64,000 bases of DNA from Siderastrea radians. Taxonomy: Eukaryota; Cnidaria; Anthozoa; Scleractinia; Rhizangiidae. A program made the translations under genes and the position numbers. Location: positions 66,576,367 to 66,640,366 of the forward strand of contig OZ024890.1 in NCBI GenBank assembly GCA_964017195.1, written 5' to 3'. The notes beneath the pieces were generated by a model that was not told where the DNA came from, ran no database searches, and was given only the letters and a program-made list of their open reading frames with translations. Of the stretch, positions 15,687 to 38,444 are shown one piece after another. Within the stretch, counting starts at the first letter, position 1; each line of letters begins with the position of its first letter.

Positions 15687-18249
15687 GGAGGCGTAGTAAA
15701 ATTGCCTTTTGCTGATAGCTTGCATAGCAAATGCTTCCCTGTGTTTTCCACGTGTCTGAAGTGTTGTCGCTTTTTCATATGCGAAAGTAAGGATGCAAAC
15801 AAGAGTTTACTCTTTCTTGTCCAAACTTTTTGCCAAAAAAAAAAGCGAAAAACTTTTCAAGGGGTGGAAAAACCTACAGAAACATTTTTCACTCAGGCTA
15901 CATCTTACAAAACGAAACCGGTATAAGTTATCTACACTACAATTAATACACCCTTACATATATGACATTTTACCAAACATTTTATAGCTGTATATACTAA
16001 AACTGAAACACATCAAATGTTGTACTGATTGCATGCGGATTCTTGAGGCCGAATTCCGAGCTATTCGTTGCCAGAACAAATTTCGAGGATTTAAATTTTT
16101 CACGTTTTCCACAAATCCAGAGCAAGGTTCCCTACGAAACTATCTTCTGAATGAATCTCTTTTGACATCAAAGAAAAATCGGAAATATCAATTACCAATG
16201 AATAGCCTAGCAATAGAGTCTGTGTGGAAAACTAGTTTTCACTCGAAAAGAACGTCTCTTGCAATTGATACAGACTCGCAAGAAAGAAATCCCCAAGAAA
16301 CTTGACATTAAAATAATTTCTATAAATCGTAAGAATCAGAAACGGCAAAAACAAATGGGCACAAAAAATATCATCAGCATGACGCGCGTATGCCAGCTGT
16401 TCGGTCTCGATAAAGTTGGTGATACTATATGCAATCAATACTTCAATTTAACACAGTTGATCAAGTTAGATAACGCACTAGTATTAATAGATGTCTATCA
16501 TTGCTTCTCTCAACCCTGGGGCGGAGCACGGGCGCCATTCTTTTAAACAGATTGTTAGCGGTAACGAGACTGTTATTGATGGCTGCGACATCAAAGAAAA
16601 AAAAGCGTCAAAACGATTCCTTTTTTTCAGGAAATCTCATCGGCTTTAGCGATTAATTCTAGATGTACTCTTCTGTTACAAACGTTTAAAATCATCTCAA
16701 TATGCGAACTTTGCTTCGCCCCTCCACCGACTGCGCCACACCCATTCGGCTTTCTCCACACTCTTGTGATTAGGATAATTTAAGTTATCAAAATTCCAAT
16801 CTCGGCTATTAAAATTTCTAGCTTTCTCCTTGGTTTATTGCACGCAGGTTTAATATCAGCGAGTAACTCACTTTAGGCCTTAAAAAGAAAACTGAATGCA
16901 ATGTCAAGTGCTACAGCTTTCAAAAGTTTACACCGCGAACCAAAACACGTGATAAAGACGGCCAAAAAACAAACAATCAAACAAACCAAACAAACCATGT
17001 TTCGGCAACGCTTACCAAATTTGAAAATTTTATATTAAAAAAAAAATCTTCCACTCGCACTTGTTGCATGGTGACTGGTGACGCTGTTTCTCATCTCACA
17101 TCCAACGCAGGCTCGTGGAATAATTGTTAAAAGTCTTCGGTGGAAGCTTCTTAATTTGGACACTGACCAAAGAAGGAGCGAAAATCAAATTGATTAAATT
17201 CAAATCAAATTCAAATTGATAATACTAATCTAGCTTCTGAACTTAAGACTGATTTCTAATGAAATTTTTCAAAAAGAGGCACACTGGATATAACAAAAGT
17301 TATTAAAAATTAGCGTATCTGAGTATTATACGAATACCTTACTCAGTTTAGTACACACCGTATATGGGCGGAAGTAGTTCTTTTGTTGCTGTTACTTATT
17401 TCCCAGCCAAAAATTGTGTAAAATGCTGTCTAATTCCACTCACACAAGCCAGTTCTGTTATGGAGAAAGTCTATCCTAAAATACCTGGCAAATAATGGTT
17501 GATTATGTGCAAACTATCACACTCCATTCGATCGCAATTAATCACACACTTTGACTTCAATATCCTGCCTACAGCTTAGGAACGAAGACGGTATACTCCT
17601 GACAGTTCTCTTCGTACTGGACAGGTTGCCAGCTAGCTCGAGATTGATACCCTCACATCTTGATCTTCTTGCCATAAACGCGGCTCTGTCAGATAGTAGA
17701 ATACAATAAGAAACATTGATCGTTTTATACTTGAAACGCACTGGCCTATTTTGTTTGATTTGTTCCTCTCTGGTTATGCGTGTCAAGATACTCTGTAAAA
17801 GTCCGGCACAACACGAATGATACTGCAGCATCGATCAGCTTTAAGGCATCTTTCATGAACAGTAATAAAGAGCAAAAGAGCGTACCGTGCTCAACTGCAT
17901 TTAAAAGAGAGAAATTCAAAGTTTTAAACATGTGGAAAAAAGCTAAGACAACCCCCCAAAAAAGAACAAAAACAAAAACAAAACAAAACACACACACAAA
18001 TAACTTGTTATCCTTTGCATTGGGGAAAAATCTTCCATTGCACTGAAGCCAGCATCGCGGGGTTGACTTCTTCAAAGCAGGAGAAAGTTAACCTAGGACT
18101 AAGGTCAATTTCGAATTTCTGCAAATTATTTTCAGCCTGCAATTGCGTTTGGACTGCTTTCCGTGAAACTGCTACTTACATGGAAAACCAGCAGTTGGAG
18201 AAGTTTTACTCAAGGCACCAAAAACATTGGCTTACTTTTGAAAAATCAT
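15687..18249. other. No supported gene
   Basis: Several short open frames exist on both strands, including 17538-18075 (minus), but none shows a domain, splice support or plausible composition. Part of this stretch may be the 3' UTR of the minus-strand gene that ends at 18250. Confidence 0.45.
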
Positions 18250-18437
18250 TCAGGGTTTTCCCAGTTCTTGCCGTACACAGCGTATGTTTTCCAACTTATT
18301 TCTCGATTGATTTTTCTGGCTTAACCACCGCTTTGAATTAAATTGTTGTTTGGTGCCTACCTGCCAAAGATAAAAGACTGCTGAAATTCCCAGGAAGAGA
18401 ACAAGAACCGATCCAAATCCAAAGTTTGCAAAATACT
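18250..18437 (-). CDS. Exon 17: terminal transmembrane exon with cytoplasmic tail
   Basis: The acceptor is tttcccag. The TM unit is YFANFGFGSVLVLFLG then ISAVFYLWQ. The frame continues past the position where the other units have their donor into a Lys/Arg/Gln-rich tail of about 35 residues (KRWLSQKNQSRNKLE region) ending ELGKP and stop. A donor-like CAG|gtaggc remains at that position (18359-18360) but would leave phase 0, so reading through is preferred. This exon would provide the C-terminus. Confidence 0.68.
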
Positions 18438-21400
18438 CTGGGAAAAAATACACACAAGTATATTAGTTAACTGACGTCACCTTTTAACCCTATTTAGCCT
18501 GGAGGGTGGGCGCACATTGTGCCCGCGCTGACTTTAACGAATTATAACTTTTAAACGGGTAGAAGAATAATCACCAAATCCCGTGACTTTTCCTGAAATT
18601 TATCAGAGAAAATTATCCTCTGTCAATGACGTGTCTATGATGATTGACGCTTCCATAGCAACCGTCTACTCAGGAGGTGTTTTGACTATTTTCTGTCTTT
18701 TTTCAGTCTTTTTTTTTTCAGTTTTTTCCCCATCGTTTGTAAAAAGAAGATAATCCTTTACTTTTTTGTGCTTGGTTTGATTGAGTATGTTTCTTAGAAC
18801 AAATTCATATATTTTTCGATGACGTCATTGTCAACTGTATGACTGCATGTCGGGATTCAAGATGGCGGATCAAAATTCAAAATGGCTGCTTTGTGACGTC
18901 ATTGTGACGTCATCAAACGTCATAATCGCCACGTCATAAACCCAAACTGTTTAGCTGATGACGTACTATAAACGTGCCAAGTTTCATCACAAGAGCGTGA
19001 ACACTTTTCGAGATCTATAGGGGGCCCTTTGTGCCCCCCCTATAGATTGCGCTCATTCTACTCCAAAATATTACGTTTTGCTACCCGCTTCCAGCCCCCC
19101 CTTTAATTAATTTCTCATTACGCTGGCCTCCCAACTTTTGTTGCAACCTCTCCTAGTTATAACACTAATGTTGAAGATTTTAGTCTTGGGTAGAGAAATC
19201 TAAACACTCGACGTCGGATAAATGCAAAAAGCTATAATGGTCTAAAAATCTTTAAATGGTCTTACACCCGGGTATTTAATCACTCAATTTATCAATTTAT
19301 CATCAATTTTTTAACCCTTACTCCCAATATCCTTGCACCTTTGTTTTTACTTCTGTTTTGGTTGAACCATGAAAGGTTTCAGTCAAGATACCATGCAAAG
19401 GAATCATTTAAGGTTCAAAACTATACCAACAAAATCATTACATAATCACCTGCATGTCTTTTGTACCAAACTGCTGAAAATCCTAGAAGAATTCCAAGAA
19501 GGACTCCCAAAATTGCAAAGTTTCCTGCGAAAGAGGAATTAAAAAGAACAATGAGAATAACTAAGTCGTTATGAAATTTAAACTCGATATGGAGTCTACT
19601 TAAAAGTCTAAAAATGAATACAACTTATACTATAGCTTATATCTTTTTCGTCAAAACACTTCTTGTTACCTGTTCGCCAAAGATAGCCAACTGCCAGGAT
19701 TCCCAGGAATAACAAAACCAAAAATGAAACGTTCACAAAGAATCCTGAAAACCGAAGAAACATTTTTTACCATGAATATTGTCTTACATTTTTAACCCTC
19801 GGACCAGATGCCCCCTCCCCCCCTCCCCCAAGACCAGCAAAGTCATACCACATTGTTGTATAAAAAGACAGGTGGTACGGGGAGGATAAAAGCTCTCCCT
19901 GAGGGATTTTTGCTCTGTTAAGCCGATTTGGAAAGCTTATACACTTAATTAAGGGCGTTCGCGCTAATTGTTTCTGCGCATCCTTACTGCGCACGCAATT
20001 CACTTCGCGATCTCATGCCATGTCATGTATTGAGCGCGCGCGCTGTTGAAGAAATGCGGAGATATATAGCGCTAGTGGGCGCTTTAATATCTATGCACGG
20101 GTTTAACTCTCTTAAATGTTCGGTGACCCCATATTTTCTTTTGATAGATCACTTTCTTTGTCGATTATCTACGTTTTGTGAAAAAATGAAGGAAATCTGT
20201 ATTGTGGACGTTTGATTTTTTCAACTTTTCTGCCCTTGCATCATGGAATTCTGCAATTATTGAAGCTGCACGGTGTTCGCAAAAGTCCATCTTAGAGGTT
20301 GAGTTTAACTAGAAGGGTGACACTGGTTCAAATTATTTACTTGACAGACCCACTTAAATAAAATTTGACTAAGAAAGTGGGTCTACAGCGAATCATTTTT
20401 CATATTTTTCAACTTAGAAGCACTGAGGCCATGTCGAGTTACGAGGACCGATGTGTCAAAATTGGGGTAGTTTTCCACGCGCTTTATTTCGAAAAAGAAG
20501 TCGGTGACCCCCCCCCCCCCCATGTTTTGCATTTCCGGCATAGGTAACTCATTATCTGACTGTAGGCAAACTATGAAAAAAATCTGTGTTGTAGAAGTTT
20601 TTCGCGCGAACATCCTTAGAAGATAGCCTGTGATGTCCTGTAAAATAAGGCTAGTTTTACGAGTTATGGGGGCGTGTGACATCATACACGATGGTGGGTT
20701 TTGGCGATTCCTCATCAGTTTCTACAACAAAGATTCTCAGCTGCATAAAGAACAGAATTTGCAAACTTTGCACACCAGACAACAAGAACGAAGTTGAATA
20801 AACACTTTGCTGCGTTTTCTTAGTCTTTTACAATCTTTTACTATGAAAAAGCTTGATTTGTTTTGTAAAACAAGAGTTTTCTTTGCACACTCTGTCAAAG
20901 ATTGTTTGACCTCACATGTACAATGATTATAATATGTCGTGGGCACCTTTTGACCGATTCTCACAAAATTTCACGTAAGAATGTCTAAGGGATAGAAAAA
21001 AAGGCTACCTAAAACTACAATCGCTGAAAAAAAAATGTACCGGCAAAATTGAAAAAACAAACAAACAAACAAACAAACAAACAAGCAAGCAAACAAAACT
21101 AACAGCCGATTCGTCTGGCACCCACAACTCCTTGTCCCCGTATAAGTATATAACCTTTGAATGCAGAGGTCCACACGACGCGTAAATAAACCGCACTGGT
21201 TCGGGTTTGCCGGATCTCTGGTGTGGAGATGCTGGAGCCAGACGTCACTCGAAGTGTAATTGAACAAACTGAATGAAAGGCTGGCACTACGGCAAAGGGC
21301 TGATTTATTTAAGGCCAATATTTCGGCTAACAAAATTAGCCTTCCTCAAGGCCAGAGCTATACAGAAGGAAAATGCTATAACGGCTCCAAAAAATTTGAA

Positions 21401-23884
21401 TTTTGTAAGTACTTCTGAGGGCTAAAGTTCAGTTAGGTTGATTCAACAGAGAGGAAGAGTTTCTTTACTATGGCGTCATTGATTACCACCAACCGAATTC
21501 TTTTATTTGATTTTTTATTTTTTTCGTAAAGTTTGCACGAAAAACTAAAACTGATGCTAAAGGATTGGATTCTGGTCATAGCAGTCAAATGATGCCATCG
21601 TGTTAACCCTTTCCCGTCAGCGTCTTTTCCTTAAAAACGTTAAAGGGTTTTTTTAAGTGCTATGTTGCCAAATGCCACTACATCTTCCTACAAAAGCGTT
21701 TTCTTACAATTTAGCTAAATTTTGAGCCAACTTCTGTTGTAAATTGTACAATATTTTGTTTTGACACATGGACATAAGCCAAAATTCATTTCCAATTTTT
21801 TCTCGCTTCTTATGCTTTCCTTTTCTCTCCCTTTTTATTTTCTTTATCTTCTACCTTTTATCCCCTTTCTATCCACTGGAAAAGGTTTGGCCTCAGCCCT
21901 TCAAAAAACCTGCAAATGGAACATTGATCGACTAGGTGACTTGGCCTATTCCACCACCAATTTTGCACCCAAACTGGACATGTTTTTTCTGCAATAGCTC
22001 TGCCAGAATTTGGTCCATATTCAAAATGGACACACGAACGGATGGATCTGTCCTTGCTGTGTTAGCTGCTTATCAAAACAATCTGGTGTCGTCAGAAAAT
22101 GACGACGTCACAAGTGGTTCATCAACTACCGACTCCAACGTCGGGAAAATACGACTCTCTGCGGGAAAGAGTTAATGCCCTGTTAAAGTAGGGAAGGCAA
22201 GAGAAGAAACGTTGAAGTTTGAACATATTCCAAAAACCTTTTACAAGTAAATCTTGACAAGGAAAACTTGTTCGTTCGCAACCATGCTTAGTGTCGTAAA
22301 AATATTACCCTGAACTAAAACAGCCCATTTTACAGTTGTATGATTGGTAACCTAGCCTTTGAATGGAAGCGAGGCCACAGTTGACTTTGTTTTGATGCAA
22401 ACCGTCCTGCTCATTATCATTAATATTTCTTTAAGTACCTGTGGCCCAAAGACAACAAACTGCCAGAATTCCCATAAGAACTTCAGTTCCAACGTATGAC
22501 AAGTAAGCTGCAAAAGAAGAAAGGGATATTAGCCTAAAAGTGTTTTTTTTAATCTTCATCTGGTGACATATCTTAAAGATTTGTTTCCTGCGAGACAAAG
22601 CGACAGCAAGACTATAACTGGTTAAGAAAATGAATTAACCAAGTCTAAACTTTCAACGGTTTTTCAACGAAATTCGAGTTGTACATGAGGTCAGAGCCAA
22701 AGCATCACGACGAAATTGAGTGGAATGCATGAAGACAAGTCCTGGATTATACGAAATAACGTTGACTTTTCGAAATCGGATGACCAGTCTAGTGCTAAAT
22801 TCTGATAAATCAGAGAATTAACTCTGCAGTATATATTTGCAGGAAGGAAACCACTTCATTTCCTACTGAGCATTGCCCTATAGCAAGGAAATGTATTCCA
22901 CACGAGGTAAAGAAAAAAATTTTTGACCTCTGTGGGATTTGAACCTCAGTACGACTCCCAGATTTTGATCACCGATGTTCTACTGACTCAGCTACAAGGC
23001 AAGACAGGAGCAGGTTGTGGGTATTTTAGATAGTAATTTGGGGCAATGAACATGTGAAGAGTACATGATGAAATATCGTGCGGAGCAGTAAGGATTATAC
23101 AGCTCGAGAATCAGAGAATCAACTCTGCGTTGTAAATTTAGGTGCTGAAAGGAAACCGCGTATCAAGATAGTCAAAGGTCCAATATTCTTCTTCAACTAA
23201 TGCACGTGTTTTTGAAATAACACGGTATTTTTGTTCCATAGTTTGTATATATTTGAAATTTCTGCACGAATTTAGATTTTAGAGACACAGAATCACAAAC
23301 GCAATGAACTCCAAACCTTTGATACATCCGAGACAGGGAAGTAGACAACAAATGTCCTCTATTGTATTTTATTTTTCAAAAATTGAGTCGGTTGGCAGTG
23401 AATTTATTCATGCGCATAAAAGGCATAAAATGTTAATCATTATAACAAATTCTCTCTCCTATCTAAAGTGGAGCATTTTTTAGAAGACAAAAATTTTTTG
23501 CCAGATTTCATGGCAATTTTAAAAGTAAGAAAAAGAGACCAGAAATAAATTAAGAAAACAATATAACGCGCAGAATCTTACCTTTGAGCCCTTGGACTCT
23601 AGAGAGGACAACAGTTTCCCAAATGCTCCACACAGATCGCGGTAACCTTCTTTTCACATTTGTATACAGTTGCCCCACTTGAGATTGAACAACTCCGAAA
23701 CCATCGGCATCAACTAGAAACATGGTTTATGAATAAAAACAATTTAGTGAGTAAAACCTTGCCAGAACTACTCCTGAACTTCGCAAATATGATATATTCA
23801 CATGGCTCTCCTTCTCCAACAATACCATTACTTAACCTTTTCTGCTTTGCCGCTAACATTTAAGATGATATTGGCCAAGAAGAC

Positions 23885-23915
<31 letters not shown>

Positions 23916-26900
23916 AAGCTTGGTCAATAAAGGATTTATTATATGGCCAAAAAGAACACTAGAGAAACTGATTTTATTATTAGTTGCTCACGACACTCGT
24001 CAAACATCCTGGTTTTCATGGTTTTTATCTCTTTGAGGCTTCTAGCTGTTTTCTTTCTTTCAAATCCAATATTTTTCTCGCTCGGGCAATCCCGAGCAGG
24101 TAAGATGGCTCCATCTCGCCCGCTCGGGTAACCAATCAGAGCACAGGATTTGGTTCATCTTGCCTGCTCGCGCAGCCAGCCATAATAAGTATGACGTAAC
24201 AGCCGCTTAAGACTAAAACGGATTTACATTCTCATAATTTAAGCATATGGATTCATCGTCTCAAGCTTTTGACTACAGCGGTCTTTTCGTGCATATAAAC
24301 TAGTATTCAGTGTGAACCCAAGAACAAATAGTTCAAAACCCTTATCAAGTCACCCCCAAAACAAACAAGCAACAAACAAACAAAGATAAACACTAAAAGA
24401 AACAGGACCATAGCAAAGCAATGCTCCGTATCTTAATTTTGAACATTTGTCACACTTAAGAATGTTATCCACAAACACAACGTTTTGAACTCCAGGACTA
24501 AAATAATCAAGAGAATTTAATTCTTTCAATTCTAACTTCACTACTTATTTTTATCTTGTAGTATATGAATGGATCACCTTGTTACCTGTTCGCCAAATAT
24601 GCAGAGCTACTACAATTCCCAGGAGAATCAAAAACAGAGATCCAGATCCGATGAATCCTAAAAATAAAGCATGTCGACTAAGCAATTACTCCTGTAATCG
24701 ATTTTGCCGAGGGTAAGGGACGTTCAGTTGTTTGGGTCGGCCCATAAGAACCACCAGGCTAAGCGTTGTCCCTTGATGTTAACGAGATATCTGCACATAA
24801 CAGACGAGTTTACGTGAGATGACATCACCTCCATCATTCAGGCAATTCATCAGTTCACGTTTTCACATGCGTTCAAGATTGGAACAAACTTCGTGAGGGG
24901 TTACGACATTACTACAAAACAGGTAATTCTCAACATATGAAAATATGAATTTTTTTAATTCGCTCGATTTTGTGATTACATTGCAAATGAACCTTATAAC
25001 AAAAATCTGTACCTAGTTGTGACTGACGTGTCGATTAAAAAGTGCTGAATAATTCTGAGATCATAACCATTTCGTGCATTAACTGGCAGACGAAAAGCGT
25101 TAACTTTTTTCAAGGAATAAAAGCTGTCCTTAAAACGAGGAGTTAGTAAAGTGGAATTACACTCTTTTCCGCACAATTTCTGTTCTGATTATCATTTTAT
25201 TAATTTCACTGGGGAGTGAGCAATTTACTAAACATGAAATTAAATACAGTGTTATTACCTGAGGCCCACAGACACCAGAGTCCAAGGCTTCCAAGGAGAA
25301 ACAGAACCAAAACTCTATATCCAACATTCTCAAACAAATCTGAAAAAGAACATAAAAATTAAAATATCTTTGTTATGGCTTATTCTATAACTGGCCTCAA
25401 ACAGAATAGGTCTCGTCATCCTCAACATTCTTGTGTTCTCATTATCGTATTCTGGTATTTTTGGCGGGAAAATGACATCACGAATTTTGGTGCCAAATTG
25501 TGTTTCAGTAGTTGTTAAAATGTGTTGAGAAAAGGGTTTTGATACTACCTGTTTCGAAGAAAGAAGAGAGAGCCTCAATTTAATCAAAGATACAACATTT
25601 TAAAATTTGAATTCTTCGCCATTTTTAAATTAATAACTAAACTAGATCAAAATAGCAGGAAATAAAACATTTCAATGTGCTATTTCTTTTGATTAAATCT
25701 GGATAATGTAGTTGGATAGTATAAAGAATTAAGTTGTAAAATAAAGTGCACTTTAAATCGACCACATCGCGACAAATTCACAGTCTCGGTACGAAAAGTT
25801 ATGTAGAGTGGTATACAAGGTTAGGTTTCGAAACTAGAAATAATTGTTTTTGGTTCCAGATGGCCAGGATGGAAATGGATTGCATCTTGAAAATGTGGTT
25901 TTTTACTTACGTCTTGGAGAATTGCTTCATTCCGTGGTGACGGTCAATGACTTCAAACGCCAAGTTAGTCGACCAATGAGATTTAAACGTGTCTTGCTGA
26001 TTTTAAAGAGGCTAAATAAGAATTTCTAGGTTTTGGATAAAAATGAAACTGAAGAAATCTAGAGATGAAAAGTGATTTCCCCAAAGGCAGAGCAAATCAT
26101 AAACAGTTTTTATAATTTGCGAGAAATAAGGAAAATTCCAAATACAAGATTTATGTTAAAAGGTAAGTAACCCGTTTCGTCACCTGTTCGCCAGAGATGC
26201 CAAACTGCTAGAATTCCCAGCAAAAGCAAGAGCAGTGATCCAAATCCAACGTTTACAAAAAATCCTGGAAACAAAACAAACATTTATCATTAAACTACAA
26301 CAATAAATCAAAATCAACGAACCGATTTTAATAAAGATCAGACAGAACACCGGTACTTTGCATTAACCATCTGAACTCCTGACTTTAGAATAGCGTTAGT
26401 TTTGACAGTCATTGTTATTCAGTCCTGGGCTTAACAATATCTCGTTAGCGCAGGAGGTGTCATTTTCAAAAGAAGCTACAACGCACAATTTTAAAACTTA
26501 AAAGGAGAGTGGTTAAGTAAAAATTGATTTTTTCTTTTTTTTCTTTTTTATGCATCGAAAACCAGTAGAAGAGATGCAAGCGGTAAAAGAAAAAAAAAAA
26601 CTTCTCGGACGTTGAGTTTAACTGAAGTTGAAAGAAACAATGTTGTCTGATACTGAGGGAGAGAAAAAAAAAATTGTATTTCTTTCCGTCTTCTGTTTCA
26701 TTCCGTGTCACGACGCTAAGAATGAATCTAATAAACAATAAATAAAGTCATGACGTGTGTTCTAAGTATCCATCAATATAAGTAAAACTCTGATATCATC
26801 ACCTGCGACCCAGTGACAACAAACTGCAAGAATTCCCATGAGAAACAAATCCAGAAATTCAGATACAACATTTGCATAATTATCTGAAAAAGAATGAAGA

Positions 26901-29900
26901 AAAATTGACTTCTGTTACGTCTGTGTAACTTAGTACTTCAATTTTACAATGAGGCCCAAGTTATGCATATTACGCTAACCGCTCAAACTCCTTTTCTTAG
27001 CCACGTTTAGACGTAATCAACTGCATACCTTTGGTAACTTCACTTTTTATTTCGAGATTGAGGCTTTGGCTAGTCTGACAGAAAGATTGCGGATGATTCG
27101 TAAAAAAAAAATTCTATGTAAATAATTTTGAGGGGGTTAATTTTAATGCTGTGTGAACGTCCTCTTCGTCTCGTTGTCATAATTTGGCGGCCCCCTAACT
27201 CATTATAGGGCCTCAGCCTAGTGGTCAATGATTTAGTGCAGAAACGTCTCGTTCCCAGGACCCGATAGCATAAAACCTCAAGTTATTTTACAGTGCTGGG
27301 CTGTAAAACCGAAACACTCTGTTTAGTGAAAGTTTTCTCAAATAAAAAAAAAATTAAACTGAATAACGGTTTTAAGTTGTAACAGTCTCGTTGTATTCTA
27401 GTTTGCAGCATTTCAAGCAAACAAGAAAAAAACGTGTAGAATGTTACCTTTGAGCTTCTGGACTCTTGGGAGGATGTTCTCTGAGACATTAAGAACAAAC
27501 TGCGGTAATAGTCTCTTCACTTCTGTGTGCGCTTGTTCCATGTGACTTGCAATAACTTGGAAATCAACATTACCTGAAAAGAAGTTGTTTATTGGGAACT
27601 GCAATATAGTGCGATTAACCCCAGTTTGATGTGTGAAAAATAGACAGCTATCATAAGTTTTTTACAGTGATCGTAGGGACGGTACAGCTACGGTTGCTCA
27701 GAATTTTTGATTAAAAGCTACTAACGATCGGAAGGAAAGCTTACAAACCGAATTCTTTGTCAAGAGTGAAATATACTGCTTTTCTAAGCTGCGAATCCCA
27801 ATATTTAATGTGGAATGTGTGGACCGGTGTTGTGCTAATTGGTCTGTCATAACGTGCTTTTTCGTTATTATTGTCCATCATAAAAGGGATGGAGTTTTGA
27901 GTTAGCCGTGGACTGTAATTTTGTAACCAACACAACTAAGAATGACTCGGCGACTATCCTCCTATTCTCAAACCTCTCATTTATTACTTCAAGGGTTGCA
28001 GGATCAGCCTATAGTTACTGAATTTTGCATTACCTGTGTACCAAAAATGCCAAACTGTTACAGCTCCCAAGAAAAACGGAAATAGAGATCCAACTCCAAA
28101 GAGTCCTGGAAAAAAAAGCAAACACGTGGACTGATCAATAACGATTAAGCCTAGCCTTTGCTGATTACACACAATGATACTTGTTTTACCCCTCCCCCAT
28201 TAGTCGATTTCATGTGACATGTACTTGTGCATTTAATGGAATAAGAGAATATACACTACAGGTCCCAGTTGTTCAAAAGTTGGATAGCGCTATCCACCGG
28301 ATAAACCCCTATCCAGTGGATAACGCAATTGGTTTCCCTAACACTTATCCCCTGGATAGTGATTTATCGTGGATAGCGCTATCCAACTTTTGAACAACTG
28401 GGGCCAGAACTATAGTGAAACACAAAATATACCTTTTCAATTTCGTGAAATTTTCATTGTTTCAAGCCAACAATTGCCATGTTCGTAAAGTACTGTTAAA
28501 TTTTTTTATGAAATAAATGCTCGAACTTTTAGCATGGTTTCAAAACAATCCTCCTTAACCCTCTTTAGACAGATGGGGGAAAGGAGTAGCGGTGAAAAGC
28601 GGAATCCGCTCCTACGGACTCGAAACGCTGTTAACTTTTTTATATATCAAAACAAAAACCATCAAAATTTTCAATTGTCTATTTTCAAATACCTAAAATG
28701 CATCTGGAAACAATTTAATGCGATATGTCACTGATCACGGAATTTAATGTGTCAATAAATGGTAACCATATTTTGAAGGCATGTTTTCCTAAATCTAAAT
28801 TTTAATTTTCGCATCTTTCACTGAGAAGTTCTTCGCATAATTTTCACACAGAGTTTTTTTTTTATTGGTTATTGTCATTGGTTTTGATACATTTGGGGTG
28901 GGCAGACGGAATGTCTGAATGGGGTTTACCGGAGGGGTGTCCGTAAATCGGGATTTCGCTTTAATCCCTGCACCTTAATCATCCTGTTTTATGCTACCTG
29001 ATGCCCTTATGTCAAAATAATCAAAATAAGTGCTTTTTTAAGCATGTACCAACGTGAGGTAGAATGTATTACCTGAAGCCCAAAGACACCAGAGTGCAAG
29101 ACTTCCAAGTAGAAACAGAACCAAAAGTCCGAATCCAACACTTGCAAAGTTCTCTGAAAAATGACAAGGAAAGGAAGGTTAAAGTCAACCTTATTACTTC
29201 TTTTACGTTTGACAACATTGTATGCTTTATACATCACACTGAAAGTGGTGAGGAGTCTATGGAGAGTTTTCAACCAATCCCTAGAGATTCAAGATTCAAA
29301 TGACAATGGCTTGGCAGCCATAATGTACCATGACAAAAGGATCTAATGAGAAAACATTTGGTAACGGTATACCAACATGGGAGCGATGACTTCACGTGCA
29401 TACCGTAAGTAGAAAAGCAAAGACACTTGAAACAATAGACCCCTAGAAGTCTTCATTCTTCTTTATGTATCAGTATATTTAGTTTTGAGAAGTTCAAATC
29501 ACTGTAATTTTGTCCTAACTGTAAGCGATTGACTACTTTATAACTGAGACGAGAACTGAGAACGAATCATTAAACTCAATGAGTAAAATTCTTTCCATCG
29601 TCAGATAAACTACGTCAAAAATTGTGCCAAGTTCGGAACTAATATCGGTTTGATAGGACTTCTGGACACTAATTATGACACGCCATTCCACGTGAAGATC
29701 CATTTCGTTGTGCCCTACTCTTCCTGAAAGTGGCGAGTTTACATGAAAAGCAAGGACCAGGGCCCCGTTTCTCGAAATTCCCGGTAACTTTTCTGGCCCG
29801 GAAAGCCATTTTATGAGAGCAACGTTAACCTTAAAGATTCAAAATTTTGATGGCTTTAAAAACTAAGCATTAAAATTGAAGTCGACGAAACAAGTTGAAC

Positions 29901-32900
29901 TGGTTTGCGGGCTAAAAGCTACGCCACTACTCTATAGATTTTGATTTTAAAATATAACTTCGGGCCCGAAAAGTTCCCGGGATTTTCGAGCAACGGGCCA
30001 CAGGACCACCAAGGACTGGCTCCATCCCTTTCCTGAAGTACAAAGAGTCCTGGTAACTACAATGGCTCCCGGGCCGGAGTATAACAAAGTTAACGACGTT
30101 TGCAACACTCACTTTCCAACACCTGAACTCTTCTGCCGATGTCTGCTAAGGGCACCACAAAACGCTGTAACAGTCGAAGGATCTCCTCATATACGAACTT
30201 CGAATGCTTTCCAATGAAATCTCCTGCAAAGCATGGTTCATAATACATAAATTATAAAATTCAGTACGCTTAGAATTAGCCTGATAAATGGGAATTAATC
30301 GTGGATCGAAGAGTCTTGAACTCATGCTATTTTCAACTTCTGTACCCAGGATATTAAGTAATTTAATAAATCCTCGCATCCGCAATTGATTGATGTCGAA
30401 ACGTTTGCGATTTAATAAAATTATCTTCTGTGCTTGAGCACCTGCAAAAGGGTACCTTGTGTTCCAGGGATGACATAGATACAAAATTCCTAACAAAATA
30501 ACTACAAATAACGTACAAACTAAACCTACCCGACACATCAACTCGTTTGGCGTTATCTTCATTCTTTTCACCCTCGCCACACCTGTTTGTTGCGGTCACG
30601 ATGAATTCATACTTCTTGCCTCTTTCCACAGGGATAACATATTCACAAGTTGGGGGATCCAAATCATCTATGAACTGCCACGTGTCTTCACTCACGATTC
30701 TCTGGTACACCGTGTATCTTGTTATGTTTGCTCCGTTGTCGCTTGGTTTCCTCCACCTCAACATAATTTCGCTGCTGTTCACAAAACTGGGGATATCAGT
30801 CAGTTCCACTGGAGCGGGGATATCTGTGTAAAACAATGCACACGACTTATTGACGACAACAACAAGAGAGACAAACAATAGACAAACCTACTAACGGACA
30901 TTTGACTAACAAAAGACGGATCGAAACGCACCAATCACGTTTTACACAGTCTTCGCAGTCAATAACATCACGGCGTAATTGACACACGACCAATAACATC
31001 TCGATGATGACTTGCGCTCAAGTTGTAGAAACGTCATTATGTGTCACGAAAAAGAGTCCCACTCAGGACTACACTCACCCGGGCGATCATACTTCACCGA
31101 TTTATGGCAGACCATTCATCTTTTGCACGTTGAACATGCGTGAAAAAAAAAAACTTGTTTGGCAGTTCCATTGATGGAATTTCTTTACGACTCACCCCAA
31201 ATTAACAAGAGGATAGGTCTGAACCCATCGAGTCTCGAACAGTGGTGAAAAGGGGAGGATCGGTTCTCCGGGGTTAAATCATCAGAGTTTGTGACTTAAA
31301 TTTAAACTTGGGGAAACTTTGGGGAGGTTTTGGTTACTTAATTTGAACCATACTTTGACAGGAATTTTTTGTCCATTTATGAATGTCCTCGTTTTCTTTT
31401 TAATCCTTTTGAGCCTAATTGGTTTTATTGAATTCCTGAGTGTGGAATCACAGTTAAGCTTAGAGGGTTGATATACGTCCAAAATGTTCCCTTCGAGGTC
31501 CACAAAATGAAATGATGTCGTCACATGACATGAAAATTGCATCATGACTTCCAAATAGCCGTCTTCCTGGATCCGCCATCATGGATTACTCAGTTTTTTA
31601 AAGATGTCAGCCAACCATTAAAACTAAATCAAAAGTGGTCAAAAGTAATAAACTCAAATAAATAAATGTAAGAGTTAAAGTTACGAAGGAAAGCCTAAAA
31701 AAATCAAAATTAAAAAAATAATAACTATTCAAATAAGGCGTACCATGGAAACGTCAATTATATTCTAATTCGCTCCCCGCTCAACCGAATATAAAACATT
31801 TAACATGTAATAAGCAACCACTATTGGGGTGTGTCAACACGAGCCGTATGCGACCCTCTTTATTATGTCTTACAATCAACTTATACGGTAATAAAGTTTA
31901 CAAGCATAATACAAAGAAAGTATCAAGCACTGGAATTTCAATCTCAACGCAAGCTCGTATAACAATAGTATAGATACACAAATACTTATAATATTTTGTA
32001 AATATAAATACGGAAAACAAAATTCATAACCCTTAGTCATTGGGTTTTTAATTTTGAGGGCGAAGTGACGGACGTATGACTCGAATGAATATAAATGAAG
32101 GCAACGCACTATATATACCAACGCTCCCGCTAATGAACGTACCAATTGTAACATAATACCCCAGAGGGTTACGTAACCCATGATAAATACATATTCCTTG
32201 AGCAATGACATATCATATTGTTGCCAGATAATTATTTTTGGAAAAGTCACAAAATTTGGTAGCTTTTGAAGTGATGTTAAAAAGTCTTAATACGAATGTT
32301 TGAAGTCAGGGCTGGGTTTAAACATATCTACGCCCGAACTTGGAGGATTTTGGACGTTTCTCACTTTACCAAGCTTAGCTACTACTATTTCTGAAAGTTA
32401 TTTGGGAGCAATATGTTTAGGATTTTTTACCAGCCATATTTAGAAAGGTATTTTTTTCTTTTAGACAGGTGAATTTTCCTCTTATTTTTTCCTTTTAAAG
32501 AAGTTTATTTTGTTACGGTAACTTACATTTTAAGACCATATTAGAGTTCTTTGATGGTTTTTGTGAAAACAATTCAGAGTAACCAAAGATGGTAGCCGTC
32601 TCTTCATGTGGCATCACCCTTATGTTTTTGCAGAATTATGCTCACTTTTAGTCTCATTTCCATCGCTCGGATATTATCGGAGGCAGAATTGAACACTCCC
32701 AATCCCAGACGGCAAGGATTGACCAGTATTAGTATGATTAACAAGTCTTACCTTCTGGTACCTTTATTCTTTTAGCTTTTTCTTCATTCATCAAACTTTC
32801 ACCACATTTGTTTTTTGCAGTCACGATTAAATCAAACGTCTTCCCTCTTTCCAACGTGATAGAATATTTAGTCTCATCACAAATGCTAGCAGCTGGAACG

Positions 32901-34041
32901 AGCTCGACGAATTCCCATTTGGACACTCCACCATCGTTACTGACCGTTCTTCGATACACCAAGTAAACTAATATGGGTGCCCCATTGTTGTTCGGCTCCA
33001 CCCATGTTAAAGTAAATTCATTACTCTTTGCATCACTGGAAACGTAAGTTATCTCAACTGACATGGGCGTATCTGAAAAGAACAGAGATTAAAGGTGAAA
33101 AGGCATTTAGCAATTGAGAATTTGAAAAGGGTACAAAAACGGTACGAAATTCAAATTCTACCAGTTCACCGAGTTTGCACTTCAGATTAATTATTTATAA
33201 ATACATGGAGTGGTATTCATACCTTTCTGAACAAAAGTACTGTTTGAAAAAAAATTTAGGCTCTGTTTTACTGGGAAAATGTAGAATGAACGAACATGGC
33301 TATCTCTGAATTAGCGCAGACACTGGTCATCTAGATCAGATCTGAAATCTCTCTTATTTCAGGTTTTTGCTTATTGCATCCCAAGTTATAATCTCAAGTT
33401 ATTATAATCAGAGAAAGCATTTCAGGAAAAATAAATTGTTTCTGTTTGTTTTGTTCTCTGTTGAGCGCAATATCAAGTCTATACATTTAAAACGAACAGT
33501 ATAAATTACCTTTTGAAACCTTCACTCGCTTGCCTTCTGCTTTTAACCCCTCGCCATACTTGTTTGTGGCAGTCACAAGGAATTCATACTTCTTCCCTCT
33601 CTCCAAACCGTCCACTGTAAATTCAAATACTGAGCTGTCCTCGATTGTCTTCAGCACTTTCCACTCTGAAACTTTGTCAAACGAATCCACGGTTCTTCGA
33701 TAGATTGTATATTTGTCTATCGATTCTCCCTCTTCTTGCAGCTGGCTCCAATTCAAAGTTATGTGATTTTCATCTACCTTGGGAGGAAGCTCATTCAGCT
33801 GTACTGGCATAGGTACCTCTAGAAGTGAAAATTAAACGATATTTGTCACGAGGGCTTTTTTCACAGCATTAATCCTTTTGAGCCTGGGATGCTTTAAAGT
33901 TTTTGAGCCTTGGGTGGGGGCAGTTGTGAGCACGAACATAAAAGCCATGTCATTGACACTTTTCAGATACATAGTACGTCTATTTTAGACATTACTCCTT
34001 TAAGGTTCAAGAAATGAGACGATGACGCAACATGGTGTAAG

Positions 34042-34098
<57 letters not shown>

Positions 34099-35248
34099 CA
34101 TCCTTTATTAATCACGATAAAAAATTTAAAGCATAATGCTTGTATTACATCATGACCTCCATACAGCCATCATCATCGTCCCGTTAACGATTTCTCCAAA
34201 AGAAAATGAAAGTGTCACAGTTACGACGGCAAAGTGACAAATTTTCAATTTTCATCGCGAAGCCCCCCCCCCCCCCCCTTCCAAAGAAAAACATAATAAC
34301 AATAAATTAAATTGAATTAAATTTAAACCTCAAAACACGACTGTCGAAAAAATGGGGTTGCCATGGAACCAAATTTCCTGAACAAAATATGTCACGGCAA
34401 ACTGGCTAAAGGTAACATTTGCCAAACCCGTTAACTTGCTCCCTCATCGGCCTGTATACCAAAACAGTAAATCAGACAATCACACTAAACCTGCGAAACC
34501 TTTTTTTCTTTTTCCAAATCAATTTTTTTACTACTTGTGCAAGAGTTAAACGGTAGAAGTTATGCCATATCGTGCGAAACTTGCATTAGGAACCATTTGT
34601 TCTCTAAATCCTACCAGTAATTCGCAGTGCGCTCTCTGTAAAAAACTTTGGAAGAAGTTCCTTTCGATCTGGTGAATACCCAACCACACCAACCACAAAA
34701 GAGCGACCTTGATCATCCGTCCATACAACAGGTGATCCTAGAGCTTCATGATCATGCTTGGGAAGATCTTTGTTCTGCAAATAATGTCGTCCCTGTTCTT
34801 CTTGGTACAACCAGTGAACGGTTCGGCAATATTCTTTAGCGATGATAAATGAACGGCAACCGCTCTTTAATCCTTGTGAAAGCTTCTTCACAACGTCTTC
34901 ACTCTCACTCACCATGCAAAAACTGTTACTGCAACATTTCTTAACGGGTGTGAAGCTGAATATGTCATCTTCACGTAAGGTTGAGATGTCAAATGGTTCA
35001 TGCTCTGTATGAAACAACCTTTGTAGAAAATTCAACTGATTTTTACACGAGCAATGAGCGAAAATATTTTCATGTTGATTTTGAGTGTCAGTGCACGTTA
35101 ATAAAAATATTCGCTCTTTGTCATTCACAATTTTCTTCACTGCGCATGCAATTCCCGTGTTTTGAGGAAGGTACGGCGATCTATGCCCTTTAACGACGAA
35201 CAACCATTTGTTTGGATCCTCTTCCGCTACAAGTGCGTTTGCCTCCAT
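18250..35248 (-). CDS. Pseudoprotease-FN3-stalk-transmembrane protein with arrayed TM exons (17-exon gene)
   Basis: I assembled this gene by eye from 17 exons between 35248 (ATG) and 18250 (stop). They are, in order, a protease-fold exon, three FN3 exons, stalk 1, TM-A, TM-B, stalk 2, TM-A, TM-B, TM-A, TM-B, stalk 3, TM-A, TM-B, TM-C and a terminal TM exon with tail. The joined length is 2,802 nt, an exact multiple of three, giving 933 residues plus stop. Every internal exon is phase 1-1, so skipping any of them keeps the frame. FN3 domains imply an extracellular or lumenal adhesive or receptor-like surface anchored in a membrane. Whether all TM exons are joined (a multi-pass domain) or used as alternatives is unknown. 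A distant paralogue of the first exon starts at 62061. No signal peptide is evident in the first exon, so a 5' exon could be missing: an acceptor-like site (ctag) lies six bases before the ATG. Confidence 0.72.
18472..18912. repeat. Cluster of TGACGTCA palindromes in a repeat-like block (intron)
   Basis: TGACGTCA occurs at 18472-18479, 18820-18827, 18894-18901 and 18905-18912, with further single TGACGT/ACGTCA half-matches around 18930-18960. The block also holds AAGATGGCGG and, near 19019-19050, CTATAGGGGG...CCCCCTATAG. It resembles a dispersed repeat. CRE-type activity is possible but not shown. Confidence 0.4.
19450..19524 (-). CDS. Exon 16: transmembrane exon, type C
   Basis: 75 nt, phase 1-1, acceptor tttcgcag, donor TGCAG|gtgatt. 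It encodes NFAILGVLLGILLGFSAVW then YKRHA. The basic end (YKRHA) differs from the WRT/WAS endings of the other units and could mark a cytoplasmic boundary. Confidence 0.7.
19670..19744 (-). CDS. Exon 15: transmembrane exon, type B (B4)
   Basis: 75 nt, phase 1-1, acceptor tttcag, donor AACAG|gtaaca. It encodes FFVNVSFLVLLFLGILAV then GYLWRT. It is closest to B2. Confidence 0.8.
19745..22438 (-). other. 2.7-kb intron of the minus-strand gene
   Basis: This is the longest gap inside the TM-exon array. No further TM-like exon was found. It holds poly-C and (AAAC)n tracts and, at 21290-21360, the motif AAGGCTAATTTTGTTAGCCG on the minus strand, a mirrored stem found near the 3' ends of some retroelements. 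Confidence 0.5.
21054..21096. repeat. (AAAC)n microsatellite
   Basis: About ten AAAC units with a few AAGC interruptions, inside an intron. Confidence 0.9.
22439..22507 (-). CDS. Exon 14: transmembrane exon, type A (A4)
   Basis: 69 nt, phase 1-1, acceptor ttttgcag, donor CACAG|gtactt. It encodes YLSYVGTEVLMGILAVCC then LWAT. It is the shortest of the array, with a 12-nt deletion relative to A2, its closest match. Confidence 0.75.
22925..23010 (-). repeat. tRNA-derived SINE head in an intron
   Basis: On the minus strand TAGCTGAGTCAGTAG (A box) is followed about 45 bases later by GGTTCAAATCC (B box). The surrounding unit is bracketed by a direct repeat, AGAGAATTAACTCTGC near 22813 and AGAGAATCAACTCTGC near 23116. 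Confidence 0.5.
23582..23713 (-). CDS. Exon 13: helical stalk 3
   Basis: 132 nt, phase 1-1, acceptor tttctag, donor AAAG|gtaaga. It encodes QVGQLYTNVKRRLPRSVWS then IWETVVLSRVQGLKG. It is homologous to stalk 2. Confidence 0.8.
23860..24200. repeat. Dispersed repeat related to the 280-509 region
   Basis: AAGCTTGGTCAATAA then TTTATTATATGGCCAAA matches, in reverse complement, AAGCTTGGTTAATAAG and TTTATTATATGGCCAAA at 385-416 of the window. Confidence 0.5.
24586..24657 (-). CDS. Exon 12: transmembrane exon, type B (B3)
   Basis: 72 nt, phase 1-1, acceptor tttttag, donor AACAG|gtaaca. It encodes FIGSGSLFLILLGIVVALHI then WRT. It pairs with B1 in length and the GSGSLF / GVGSLF start. Confidence 0.78.
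25259..25339 (-). CDS. Exon 11: transmembrane exon, type A (A3)
   Basis: 81 nt, phase 1-1, acceptor ttttcag, donor CTCAG|gtaata. It encodes LFENVGYRVLVLFLLG then SLGLWCLWAS. It is nearly the same as A1 over its second half. Confidence 0.8.
26184..26264 (-). CDS. Exon 10: transmembrane exon, type B (B2)
   Basis: 81 nt, phase 1-1, acceptor ttccag, donor AACAG|gtgacg. It encodes FFVNVGFGSLLLLLLG then ILAVWHLWRT, the most typical TM unit of the array. It shares GFFVNV and LGILAV..LWRT with B4. Confidence 0.82.
26803..26883 (-). CDS. Exon 9: transmembrane exon, type A (A2)
   Basis: 81 nt, phase 1-1, acceptor ttttcag, donor CGCAG|gtgatg. It encodes NYANVVSEFLDLFLMG then ILAVCCHWVA. It contains acidic residues within the helix (EFLD), so it is a poorer membrane segment than the others. 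It is closest to A4 through MGILAVCC.W.A. Confidence 0.72.
27448..27573 (-). CDS. Exon 8: helical stalk 2
   Basis: 126 nt, phase 1-1, acceptor ttttcag, donor AAAG|gtaaca. It encodes QAHTEVKRLLPQFVLNVSE then NILPRVQKLK. It is clearly homologous to stalk 3 through VKR.LP, the 10-12 residue spacing and RVQ.LKG. Confidence 0.8.
28034..28105 (-). CDS. Exon 7: transmembrane exon, type B (B1)
   Basis: 72 nt, phase 1-1, acceptor tttccag, donor CACAG|gtaatg. It encodes LFGVGSLFPFFLGAVTVW then HFWYTG. It has the same length as B3 (24586-24657) and shares GSLF...LG. Confidence 0.75.
28261..28405. mobile_element. 145-bp palindromic MITE in an intron
   Basis: The left end CCAGTTGTTCAAAAGTTGG and TGGATAGCGCTATCCA are mirrored by the right end, closing CAACTTTTGAACAACTGG and ending GGGGCC at 28405. 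GGATAGCGCTATCC is itself a perfect palindrome and appears at both ends. No clean target duplication was seen. Confidence 0.7.
29073..29153 (-). CDS. Exon 6: transmembrane exon, type A (A1)
   Basis: 81 nt, phase 1-1, acceptor ttttcag, donor CTTCAG|gtaata. It encodes a single hydrophobic helix, NFASVGFGLLVLFLLG then SLALWCLWAS. It is closest to A3 (25259-25339), sharing VLFLLGSL.LWCLWAS. Confidence 0.8.
29762..29999. mobile_element. 238-bp MITE with GGCCC ends in an intron
   Basis: The left end begins GCCCCGTTTCTCGAAATTCC then CCGGTAACTTTTC. The right end closes with the reverse complement (GAAAAGTTCCCGGGATTTTC, ending AACGGGCC). The target duplication is unclear. Confidence 0.65.
30113..30223 (-). 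CDS. Exon 5: helical stalk 1
   Basis: 111 nt, phase 1-1, acceptor ctttgcag, donor GGAAA|gtgagt. It encodes an amphipathic segment with YEEILRLLQRFVVPLADIGR then RVQVLE. It shares the 'LP..V.....RVQ.L' pattern with stalks 2 and 3. It sits between the last FN3 domain and the first TM exon. Confidence 0.75.
30530..30823 (-). CDS. Exon 4: fibronectin type III domain C
   Basis: Phase 1-1 exon of 294 nt, acceptor tttacacag, donor GTCGG|gtaggt. FN3 cues are SEIMLRWRKPSDNGANI, RYTVYQRIV and VERGKKYEFIVTATNRCGEG. It reads in frame directly into stalk 1. Confidence 0.88.
30824..32751 (-). other. 1.9-kb intron between FN3 exons C and B
   Basis: No exon was recognised. An open frame at 31876-32250 (minus) is hydrophobic and AT-rich but has no supporting motif. 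Confidence 0.5.
32752..33072 (-). CDS. Exon 3: fibronectin type III domain B
   Basis: Phase 1-1 exon of 321 nt, acceptor cttttcag, donor AGAAG|gtaaga. FN3 cues are NEFTLTWVEPNNNGAPI, LVYLVYRRTV and LERGKTFDLIVTAKNKCGES. It is closely similar to domains A and C, consistent with exon duplication. Confidence 0.88.
33510..33818 (-). CDS. Exon 2: fibronectin type III domain A
   Basis: Phase 1-1 exon of 309 nt, acceptor cttctag, donor AAAAG|gtaatt. The FN3 signature is NHITLNWSQ (strand B Trp), KYTIYRRT (strand C Tyr) and LERGKKYEFLVTATNKYGEG (strands E-F with the conserved Tyr and Asn). A KRVKVSKG linker closes the domain. Confidence 0.88.
34042..34096. repeat. (ATC)n microsatellite in an intron
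   Basis: About eighteen perfect ATC triplets between FN3 exon A and exon 1. Confidence 0.95.
34615..35248 (-). CDS. Exon 1: trypsin-fold pseudoprotease domain
   Basis: This exon encodes 211 codons plus one base, donor TACTG|gtagg. The protease-fold cues are GIACAV (residues 32-37), IFLLTCTD (47-54), where an active trypsin would have its LTAAH histidine, and LGSPVVWTD followed by FVVGVVG (170-190), where GDSGGP would sit. By this alignment the catalytic His is Asp and the catalytic Ser is Leu, so I infer an inactive fold. Cysteines at 52, 66, 68, 105, 106, 111, 131 and 141 are notable. The exon at 62061-62655 is a clear paralogue with the same GIACAV, FLLTGTD and GSPVLWTD blocks. The family name is not recognised, and the protease link rests on short motifs only. 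Confidence 0.7.
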
Positions 35249-36547: not shown

Positions 36548-36629
36548 TTAAGAGCGAATGTTACGGTCAAACATTTGGTGGCAACATACTATGGGGTGCC
36601 ATTACCGCCAAAATTATTGTTTTGTTATT

Positions 36630-36895
36630 ATTAGGCACCAGTTTATTATTATTAGGCACAATGTTTTATTATTAGGCACCAGTTTATTATTATTAGGCAC
36701 AATGTTTTATTATTAGGCACCAGTTTATTATTATTAGGCACAATGTTTTATTATTAGGCACCAGTTTATTATTATTAGGCTTTATTTTCTATTATTAGGC
36801 ACAATCTCTTATTATTAGGCACTATTTTATTATTGTTTGGCATTATTTTCTATTATTATTTCATCTTTATTATTAGGCACTGTTTCGTATTATTT
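36630..36895. repeat. Left subterminal ATTAGGCAC array of the integrase transposon
   Basis: About ten copies of TTATTAGGCAC, alternating in 18-24-bp steps between 'GGCACCAG' and 'GGCACAATG' forms. The mirror-image array is at the right end. Confidence 0.9.
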
Positions 36896-37055
36896 TCGTA
36901 CCGTACTATCTCCAAGTAGTCAGCGGTTTTACACATGAGAACAGCATGGCAGACATTGCGAATGATCAAGGGATAGACATCTTGACTTTGTAGGCCCAGA
37001 AAAAGCAAATTGTAGCTGAGTATGTAGAAGCAATTTATCCTCGAAGTATAAAACG

Positions 37056-38444
37056 ATGGCAACTAACACTATTTCCGACTTAAGGCATGAAGTTACCTCC
37101 CGATTACAAGAGATTGTTGCTTGTGTTGGTGTGTCTCATGACAGTGACTTAGTGGAGGAACTTGAAGAAATTCAAAAGCATGTGAATCTCCTTGATTCAG
37201 TGACAAGAATACCTGAAGAGTTGTTTAATTTGTTGAGTAGCGCACGATCACTTTTACAGCAGAATGAGGAAAGAGCAAGTGTTGTTCGTAGTGGTACTCC
37301 TGGTAGGCCAGCTTATGACATCAGGAAGGAACAACTTGAGATGCTTCTAAGAGCTAGATTTAGTGTCCGATCTATTGCAGACCTTTTGCACGTCAGTTCA
37401 AGGACCATAGAACGACGAATTCAAGAACATGGCCTCTCAGTACGTGCTTTATACACCGAAATGCAGGATAGTCAGTTGGATGACATAGTGAGGGATATAA
37501 AAAGAGGGAACCCAAGCTGTGGGTCAAAAATGTTGGCTGGGTACTTTGGTGCAAGGGGTATATTTCTGCCTAGACGTCGGATAAGGGAGTCACTTTCTAG
37601 GGTGGACCCTCTTGCAGCTGCTGCAAGACGCTGCAAAGCAATAAAACGGCGCGTGTATAATGTGAGCAGGCCACTTGGTCTCTGGCACTTTGATGGAAAT
37701 CACAAACTTGTGAAGTGGCGTTTTGTTGTCCATGGCTGTGTGGATGGCTTCAGTCGAATCCCAGTTTTTTTATCATGCAGCACAAACAACAAAGCTGTTA
37801 CTGTGTACTCACTTTTTATCAAAGCGGTACAAGACTGGGGATTGCCCTCAAGAGTCAGATGTGATCAGGGATCTGAAAATGTGGATGTTGTCAAATATAT
37901 GTTGAGTACTCGAGGAACAGGGAGAGGCTCAGCTCTGGTTGGTAAAAGTGTGCACAATCAAAGAATTGAGCGAATGTGGCGGGACGTGTTTGAAGATGTT
38001 TTGGCAAATTTCTACGAGTTGTTTTCTCTGATGGAGGAACTGGGTATCTTTGACCCTTTATCTGAGTGTGATTTATGGTGCCTTCATTATGCATTCCTTC
38101 ATCACATAAACTATCGTTTACATGAATGGTCTGCTGCCTGGCTGAGACATCCCTTGTCTACAGTCAACAACAACACACCTCTTCAACTTTGGATCAAAGG
38201 TTCACTGAATTCTGCAGAAAACAATACAGACCCGGTTGATGTTACTGATGAATATGGCATTGATTGGAATGGTCCTGTTCCCCTTGATGAGGACACTGTG
38301 GAAATTCCACCTACTTCTCAAGCTCTGACAGATGAGCAAGTTGCTGACCTTGAGTCAAGAACTGAGTTACTTCGAGAGTCTTCAATAACAGATGATAAAA
38401 TTAAACTTTACAAACTTGCCAAGGAATTTCTTGAGCAGCATTAA
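37056..38444 (+). CDS. DDE integrase/transposase, single exon, 462 aa
   Basis: This would catalyse cut-and-paste movement of the surrounding 7-kb element. An N-terminal helical part (1-80) is followed by a helix-turn-helix-like segment (about 92-127, with [20 protein letters not shown]). An rve-type integrase core then has WHFD (Asp213), VDGFSR (229-234), [11 protein letters not shown] (Asp270) and HNQRIERMW (Glu305). The acidic triad has 34 residues between the second Asp and Glu, close to the usual D,D-35-E. The C-terminal part is acidic. The frame is intact, with no stop or frameshift, and begins 470 bp inside the left end. IS3-type and retroelement integrases share this core, but no reverse transcriptase accompanies it. 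Confidence 0.9.

What the first reader, a model, noticed from the sequence alone, without database searches (positions are those of the whole stretch)
18250..30223. Array of ten transmembrane-encoding exons interleaved with three stalk exons in one gene
Ten short exons (69-81 nt for the nine internal ones) on the minus strand each encode one hydrophobic helix. All internal ones are phase 1-1 with good splice sites. Three related 37-44-codon helical exons are mixed in. Joining everything gives an exact open frame ending in a basic tail. Tandem duplication of TM exons on this scale is rare. It could produce alternative membrane anchors (a Dscam-like logic applied to the TM segment) or a multi-pass domain made of short helical hairpins.
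Basis: partly seen in the sequence, partly recalled or inferred. Interest (0 to 1): 0.92.

Follow-up and report, generated by a model that had tools for sequence, protein, structure and literature searches.

The report
Gene with ten duplicated membrane-helix exons
One animal gene carries ten small, related exons that each encode one membrane-crossing helix; they look like repeated two-helix hairpins built by exon duplication rather than a menu of alternative anchors, though no RNA data were available to prove how they are spliced.

Summary
Seventeen exons on the minus strand (35248-18250) join into an open 933-codon frame: an N-terminal domain with no Pfam match, three Fn3 exons, then ten TM exons interleaved with three helical 'stalk' exons. 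All 15 exons between first and last are phase 1-1. A scan with thresholds fitted to TM1-TM9 finds exactly those nine in both strands of 64 kb and none in 100 shuffles. Exon likeness reaches at most 25 bases into introns. A TM4 query of the 805-Mb genome gave 7 matches, all TM exons of this gene; it missed three. Order and trees suggest two classes alternating A-B from TM1 to TM8 and a copied block A-B-stalk-A-B. A|B borders carry no charge (4 of 4); borders expected on the other side carry K/R (6 of 7); TM9/TM10 breaks the pattern. I favour serial inclusion as tight hairpins with N-terminal domains, stalks and tail in the cytosol (0.6). Dscam-like anchor choice is disfavoured (0.1); variable skipping stays open (0.25; TM donors lack +5G in 9 of 9). 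No transcript was seen: splicing and topology are inferred.

The parts
34615..35248 (-). First coding exon: N-terminal domain of 211 codons, ATG start, no signal-peptide-like stretch
   Evidence: no Pfam match; paralogs at window 62061-62651 (+) and C4:67145923-67146480
33510..33818 (-). Fn3 exon a, phase 1-1
   Evidence: Pfam fn3 E 3.3e-10; splice sites
32752..33072 (-). Fn3 exon b, phase 1-1
   Evidence: Pfam fn3 E 4.8e-5, 23.9 bits, just under the curated cut-off of 25
30530..30823 (-). Fn3 exon c, phase 1-1
   Evidence: Pfam fn3 E 2.1e-7
30113..30223 (-). Stalk exon S0, 37 codons, amphipathic helix-like
   Evidence: moment 0.79, 5 of 2000 shuffles as high
29073..29153 (-). TM1, class A
28034..28105 (-). 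TM2, class B
27448..27573 (-). Stalk exon S1, 42 codons
26803..26883 (-). TM3, class A
26184..26264 (-). TM4, class B
25259..25339 (-). TM5, class A, likely block copy of TM1
   Evidence: 19 of 26 residues identical to TM1
24586..24657 (-). TM6, class B, likely block copy of TM2 (shares its three-codon gap)
   Evidence: 11 of 23 residues identical to TM2, but 14 of 23 to TM4; alignment
23582..23713 (-). Stalk exon S2, 44 codons, likely block copy of S1
   Evidence: 19 of 41 residues identical to S1
22439..22507 (-). TM7, class A, likely block copy of TM3
   Evidence: 12 of 22 residues identical to TM3
19670..19744 (-). TM8, class B, likely block copy of TM4
   Evidence: 19 of 24 residues identical to TM4; the tree does not group them firmly
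19450..19524 (-). TM9, ends KRHA; weakest member of the set
   Evidence: leave-one-out E 0.79
18250..18437 (-). TM10 plus basic tail and stop; last exon as joined
   Evidence: tail 9 K/R against 2 D/E

Best explanation
A single gene encodes a cytosolic N-terminal part (a domain without Pfam match plus three Fn3 domains) fixed to a membrane by a C-terminal multi-pass region. That region is a string of two-helix hairpins: four encoded by an A exon plus a B exon (48-54 codons), and a last pair TM9/TM10, with stalk helices between some hairpins. It grew by duplication of phase 1-1 exons: A and B arose from one ancestral TM exon, and a five-exon block A-B-stalk-A-B was later copied in order to give TM1-TM4 with S1 and TM5-TM8 with S2. 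If all exons are joined serially there are 2, 4 and 4 helices after the three stalks, so the N-terminal domains, stalks and basic tail all lie on one side. Shown: exon anatomy, open frame, homology of most exons, lower change at non-synonymous sites. Inferred: one transcript, block copying, serial splicing, topology, hairpins, cytosolic side. The cellular role (a membrane scaffold or receptor that presents the Fn3 and N-terminal domains in clusters) is a guess.
For: Open frame and splice sites. Two exon classes: TM1/3/5/7 split from TM2/4/6/8/9/10 (ultrafast bootstrap 88; FastTree 0.93), alternating without exception from TM1 to TM8; the in-order pairing TM1-5, 2-6, 3-7, 4-8 is the best of 24 pairings, with a narrow lead over the second (3.04 against 2.94). 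Of 17 blastn matches between the two blocks, the 12 with E <= 0.065 all lie on exons and reach at most 25 bases into introns; five with E 0.23-0.79 lie in introns. Fewer changes at non-synonymous than synonymous sites, pooled over five exon pairs (0.25 against 0.39, Fisher p 0.007; TM pairs alone p 0.04). Charges: 4 of 4 A|B borders of TM1-TM8 have no K, R, D or E within six residues; 6 of 7 borders expected on the other side have K/R; tail 9 K/R against 2 D/E. The frame begins with ATG without a signal-like stretch, and both paralogous domains also have an ATG near the start of their open frame.
Against: No RNA. TM9|TM10 border holds K and R on the side that should be uncharged, and TM9 and TM10 are both outside class A, so the last pair may be arranged otherwise. 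TM2, TM3 and TM7 are weak helices on a crude scale. When each helix is taken as its best 19 residues, the A and B cores of TM1-TM8 are 0-2 residues apart (one pair overlaps by a residue), so the turn must use part of each exon. The trees do not firmly group TM4 with TM8 or TM2 with TM6. The pair TM2/TM6 alone shows more non-synonymous than synonymous change (0.34 against 0.26). All nine TM donors lack G at +5, against 5 of 7 other donors with it (p 0.005, chosen after looking, related exons), which would suit regulated skipping. The exons are not independent, so charge and order counts overstate the evidence. An upstream coding exon joined in phase 0 cannot be excluded for this gene.
Confidence: 0.6

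Rival explanations
1. Cassette splicing: whole A-B hairpins (or single TM exons) are included or skipped, so isoforms differ in number of helices, and an odd number would flip the side of everything downstream.
For: Every internal exon of the array is phase 1-1 and a multiple of three, so any subset keeps the frame. TM donors lack +5G in 9 of 9.
Against: Symmetric phase is also needed for exon duplication itself. All nine TM donors have CAG at -3 to -1 and the acceptors of TM1-TM10 have pyrimidine fractions of 0.71-0.94. No RNA.
Confidence: 0.25
2. Mutually exclusive TM exons giving alternative membrane anchors (Dscam-like logic).
For: Tandem homologous exons; Drosophila Dscam uses one of two alternative TM exons (exon 17; PMC3364881, passages seen).
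Against: Two alternating exon classes and interleaved stalks; the only stop in the joined exons is in the TM10 exon, so a single choice would be added to TM10; 11 of 12 array introns are 460 nt or longer (TM8-TM9 145 nt), so steric exclusion is unlikely. Eleven inverted-repeat pairs were found at 16500-30600, some joining different array introns, but no arm recurs in several pairs as a docking site would; not tested against shuffles.
Confidence: 0.1
3. Part of the array is decaying: some TM exons (TM9, or the weaker helices) are no longer used.
For: TM9 is not separable from background in leave-one-out; weak helices TM2, TM3, TM7; TM2/TM6 without excess of synonymous change.
Against: Splice sites and open frames in 13 of 13 array exons; exon similarity outlasts intron similarity.
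Confidence: 0.05

Closest known systems
Tandem exon duplications with mutually exclusive use (Dscam exon 17; papers on such exons: PMC9741552, passages seen, and PMC9013439, abstract seen)
   Same: Adjacent homologous exons; the two Dscam exon 17 alternatives encode the TM segment (PMC3364881 passages).
   Different: Ten TM exons against two; two alternating classes; other exons interleaved; probably all joined.
Reticulon/REEP hairpin proteins (reticulon homology domain)
   Same: Works-like comparison only: consecutive TM hairpins with amphipathic helices (PMC10162974 passages).
   Different: RHD hairpins are 30-35 residues by that paper, here 48-54 codons per A-B pair; four A-B pairs plus TM9/TM10 instead of two hairpins; no reticulon model among the Pfam matches of the array.
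Own-genome Fn3 gene family (C4:67.15-67.16 Mb and C9:14.06-16.36 Mb)
   Same: Related Fn3 exons; the C4:67.146 Mb gene also has the N-terminal domain exon.
   Different: No TM or stalk exons of this kind were detected there by the answered queries; of the C4 gene only 4 kb were read, of the C9 loci none.

Membership tests
Tandem exon duplication | Adjacent exons homologous in sequence | tested here: met
   weak for TM6, not shown for TM9
Tandem exon duplication | Same intron phase on both sides | tested here: met
   All 12 internal array exons phase 1-1
Mutually exclusive exon cluster (Dscam-like) | One and only one exon of the cluster per transcript | not testable with these tools
   No RNA data
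Mutually exclusive exon cluster (Dscam-like) | Uninterrupted cluster of one interchangeable exon class | tested here: not met
   A and B classes alternate and stalks interrupt
Reticulon homology domain | Sequence match to the family | tested here: not met
   Pfam scan of the joined array at E <= 1: only IFNGR1_transm E 0.046 and DUF4014 E 0.83, both under cut-off
Reticulon homology domain | Two hairpins of 30-35 residues | tested here: not met
   Four A-B pairs of 48-54 codons plus TM9/TM10
Fibronectin type III | Pfam PF00041 at the curated cut-off | tested here: met
   Exons a (40.5) and c (31.5 bits) above 25; exon b 23.9, just under
Trypsin-like fold for the N-terminal exon | Family or fold match | tested here: inconclusive
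   No Pfam match; solved-structure matches only at E >= 0.59; model pLDDT 37, no fold search run. The likeness of its GSPVxWTD and FLLT motifs to trypsin is recalled only

The most novel reading that the evidence does not exclude
Splicing of phase-symmetric A and B exons tunes the number of membrane hairpins, and odd inclusions flip the side of the stalks and tail, so one gene makes membrane proteins of different topology.
Probability: 0.15. Interest if true: 0.85.

Novelty: new variant of a known kind. Interest (0 to 1): 0.57.

Why it matters
It would be a clear case of a multi-pass membrane region assembled helix by helix through duplication of one-helix exons, with the ancestral steps (helix, hairpin, block) still readable in exon order. 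That makes the evolution of membrane-protein repeats, and whether splicing can tune helix number, directly testable in one gene.

Tried and rejected
An eleventh TM-like stretch at about 30505-30458 (minus), inside the FN3c-S0 intron: it is the top non-array match in 10 of 10 leave-one-out profile searches of 334 kb (E 0.08-0.4), but a reversed-sequence control reaches 12.0 bits against its 12.7 (the 12.7 was scored in the 64-kb window, the control in 334 kb), the DNA profile misses it, and I saw no usable acceptor. Left as unresolved.

An alternative last exon at about 17894-17746 (minus; acceptor with pyrimidine fraction 0.76, 48 codons, phase 1): one of several such open stretches in that list, not counted as part.

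Poly(A) signals: no AATAAA or ATTAAA between the stop and 16854, so the 3' end is unsettled. TM10 also has a donor-like CAG|GTAGGC, in phase 0.

Fold of the N-terminal domain: a two-row alignment gave pLDDT 37, so no fold search was run. The homologue search could not be made (database switched off), so there is no evidence from other species. The host animal was not identified.

Literature: no title or abstract start on such a TM-exon array in the listings of seven searches (11 of 11 papers listed; 36: 15 of 15; 37: 8 of 8; 57: 10 of 542; 62: 12 of 45; 63: 5 of 5; 125: 6 of 6). One search was about coral assemblies, an unverified guess at the host, and about reticulons. PMC3364881, PMC9741552 and PMC10162974: passages seen. 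PMC9013439: abstract and outline seen.
Full report
Observation. All 17 exons were found on the minus strand with AG and GT borders. The joined frame runs 933 codons from ATG at 35248 to TGA at 18250. It holds a 211-codon exon without Pfam match, three Fn3 exons, and an array in the order S0, TM1, TM2, S1, TM3, TM4, TM5, TM6, S2, TM7, TM8, TM9, TM10 plus a basic tail. All 15 exons between the first and last are in phase 1 at both ends.

Is it chance? With thresholds set at the weakest TM exon for pyrimidine tract, donor score and hydropathy, the scan of both strands of 64 kb gives exactly TM1-TM9 after merging overlapping candidates; 100 first-order Markov shuffles of one strand of the 12.1-kb region give none. 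The thresholds were fitted to the exons, so this shows specificity, not an independent discovery. A DNA profile finds the ten and nothing else below E 0.42 in 334 kb. Leave-one-out is the fairer test: 8 of 10 are recovered at E <= 0.003, counting TM3, found by a 13-residue partial match; TM6 (0.096) and TM9 (0.79) are not firmly recovered.

History. Pairwise identities pair TM1 with TM5 (19/26), TM4 with TM8 (19/24), TM3 with TM7 (12/22), S1 with S2 (19/41); TM2 and TM6 share a three-codon gap and 11/23 residues, though each is closer to TM4 (12/23 and 14/23). The tree splits TM1/3/5/7 from TM2/4/6/8/9/10 (ultrafast bootstrap 88; FastTree 0.93) and groups TM1 with TM5 and TM3 with TM7; within the other class TM4-TM8 and TM2-TM6 are not firmly grouped. 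The in-order pairing is the best of 24, with a small margin. So a block A-B-stalk-A-B was probably copied once. Of 17 blastn matches between the blocks, the 12 best lie on exons and reach at most 25 bases into introns; five at E 0.23-0.79 are intronic. Non-synonymous change is below synonymous in the pool of five pairs (0.25 against 0.39, p 0.007) and in four of the five pairs, not in TM2/TM6. This supports use of the exons in protein, but exons were chosen for likeness and sites are few.

Topology. On the joined chain the A|B borders TM1|2, TM3|4, TM5|6 and TM7|8 have no charged residue within six residues on either side. Of the seven borders expected on the other side six have K or R (the exception is TM2|S1). 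TM9|TM10 has two K/R against expectation. The tail has 9 K/R against 2 D/E. After the three stalks lie 2, 4 and 4 helices. The frame has no signal-like stretch near its start, and both paralogous domains also have an ATG near the start of their open frame; hence the cytosolic placement, which is an inference. S0 is clearly amphipathic (5 of 2000 shuffles as high), S2 somewhat (80), S1 not clearly (247).

Splicing. Symmetric phases allow any subset of exons. All nine TM donors lack +5G while five of seven others have it (p 0.005, post hoc, related exons). This is the main hint for regulated skipping. Long introns (11 of 12 at 460 nt or more) argue against steric exclusion. No RNA was available.

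Uniqueness. In the 805-Mb assembly the joined array gives 13 matches at E <= 1, all within this gene (one of them is a 44% match with stops). TM4 alone gives 7 matches at E <= 10, all TM exons of this gene, down to 52% identity. S1 finds itself and S2; S0 only itself. A class-A TM query did not complete. These searches score only first-look candidates (46, 7, 2 and 1), so more distant copies may be missed; the TM4 search itself missed TM3, TM7 and TM9. The N-terminal domain has three matches: this gene, window 62061-62651 (+) and C4:67145923. The last is followed by an Fn3 exon, and Fn3 matches at C4:67148278, 67152017, 67152884 and again at 67160885, 67162750, 67163537 suggest one or two sister genes. 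Of 66 Fn3 matches at E <= 0.01, 42 lie on C9 between 14.06 and 16.36 Mb. I could not read the 3' ends of those genes.

Conclusion. The array is real and looks used. It works most plausibly as a series of hairpins, not as a choice of anchors. It is a new variant of a known kind, tandem exon duplication, unusual for number, for the two-class alternation and for the membrane helix as the repeated unit. Rarity across animals was not measured.

Noticed in passing
36621-43593: Probable DNA transposon: inverted TTATTATTAGGCAC repeat arrays at both ends, an integrase-core ORF at 37020-38444 (+) and a HECT-domain ORF at 40001-41551 (-). A likeness to IS3EU elements is recalled, not tested.
   Followed up: partly
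62061-64000 and L009:1-640: Second exon with the same N-terminal domain (36% identity), followed on the same strand by proline- and glutamine-rich tandem repeats; that they form one gene is inferred. No related Fn3, TM or stalk exon was found in the 334 kb other than those of the gene reported here.
   Followed up: partly
C9:14.06-16.36 Mb of the assembly (G000): 42 of 66 genome matches to a related Fn3 exon lie here, on both strands and often two close together: probably an expanded gene family.
   Followed up: no
30505-30458 (minus): TM-like stretch in the FN3c-S0 intron, best non-array match to all ten leave-one-out TM profiles in 334 kb but without a visible acceptor and near the background.
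   Followed up: partly
17894-17746 (minus): Possible alternative last exon with a good acceptor in phase 1.
   Followed up: no
7066-8400 (+): Long single-exon ORF with a galactosyltransferase domain (Pfam E 2.9e-41).
   Followed up: no
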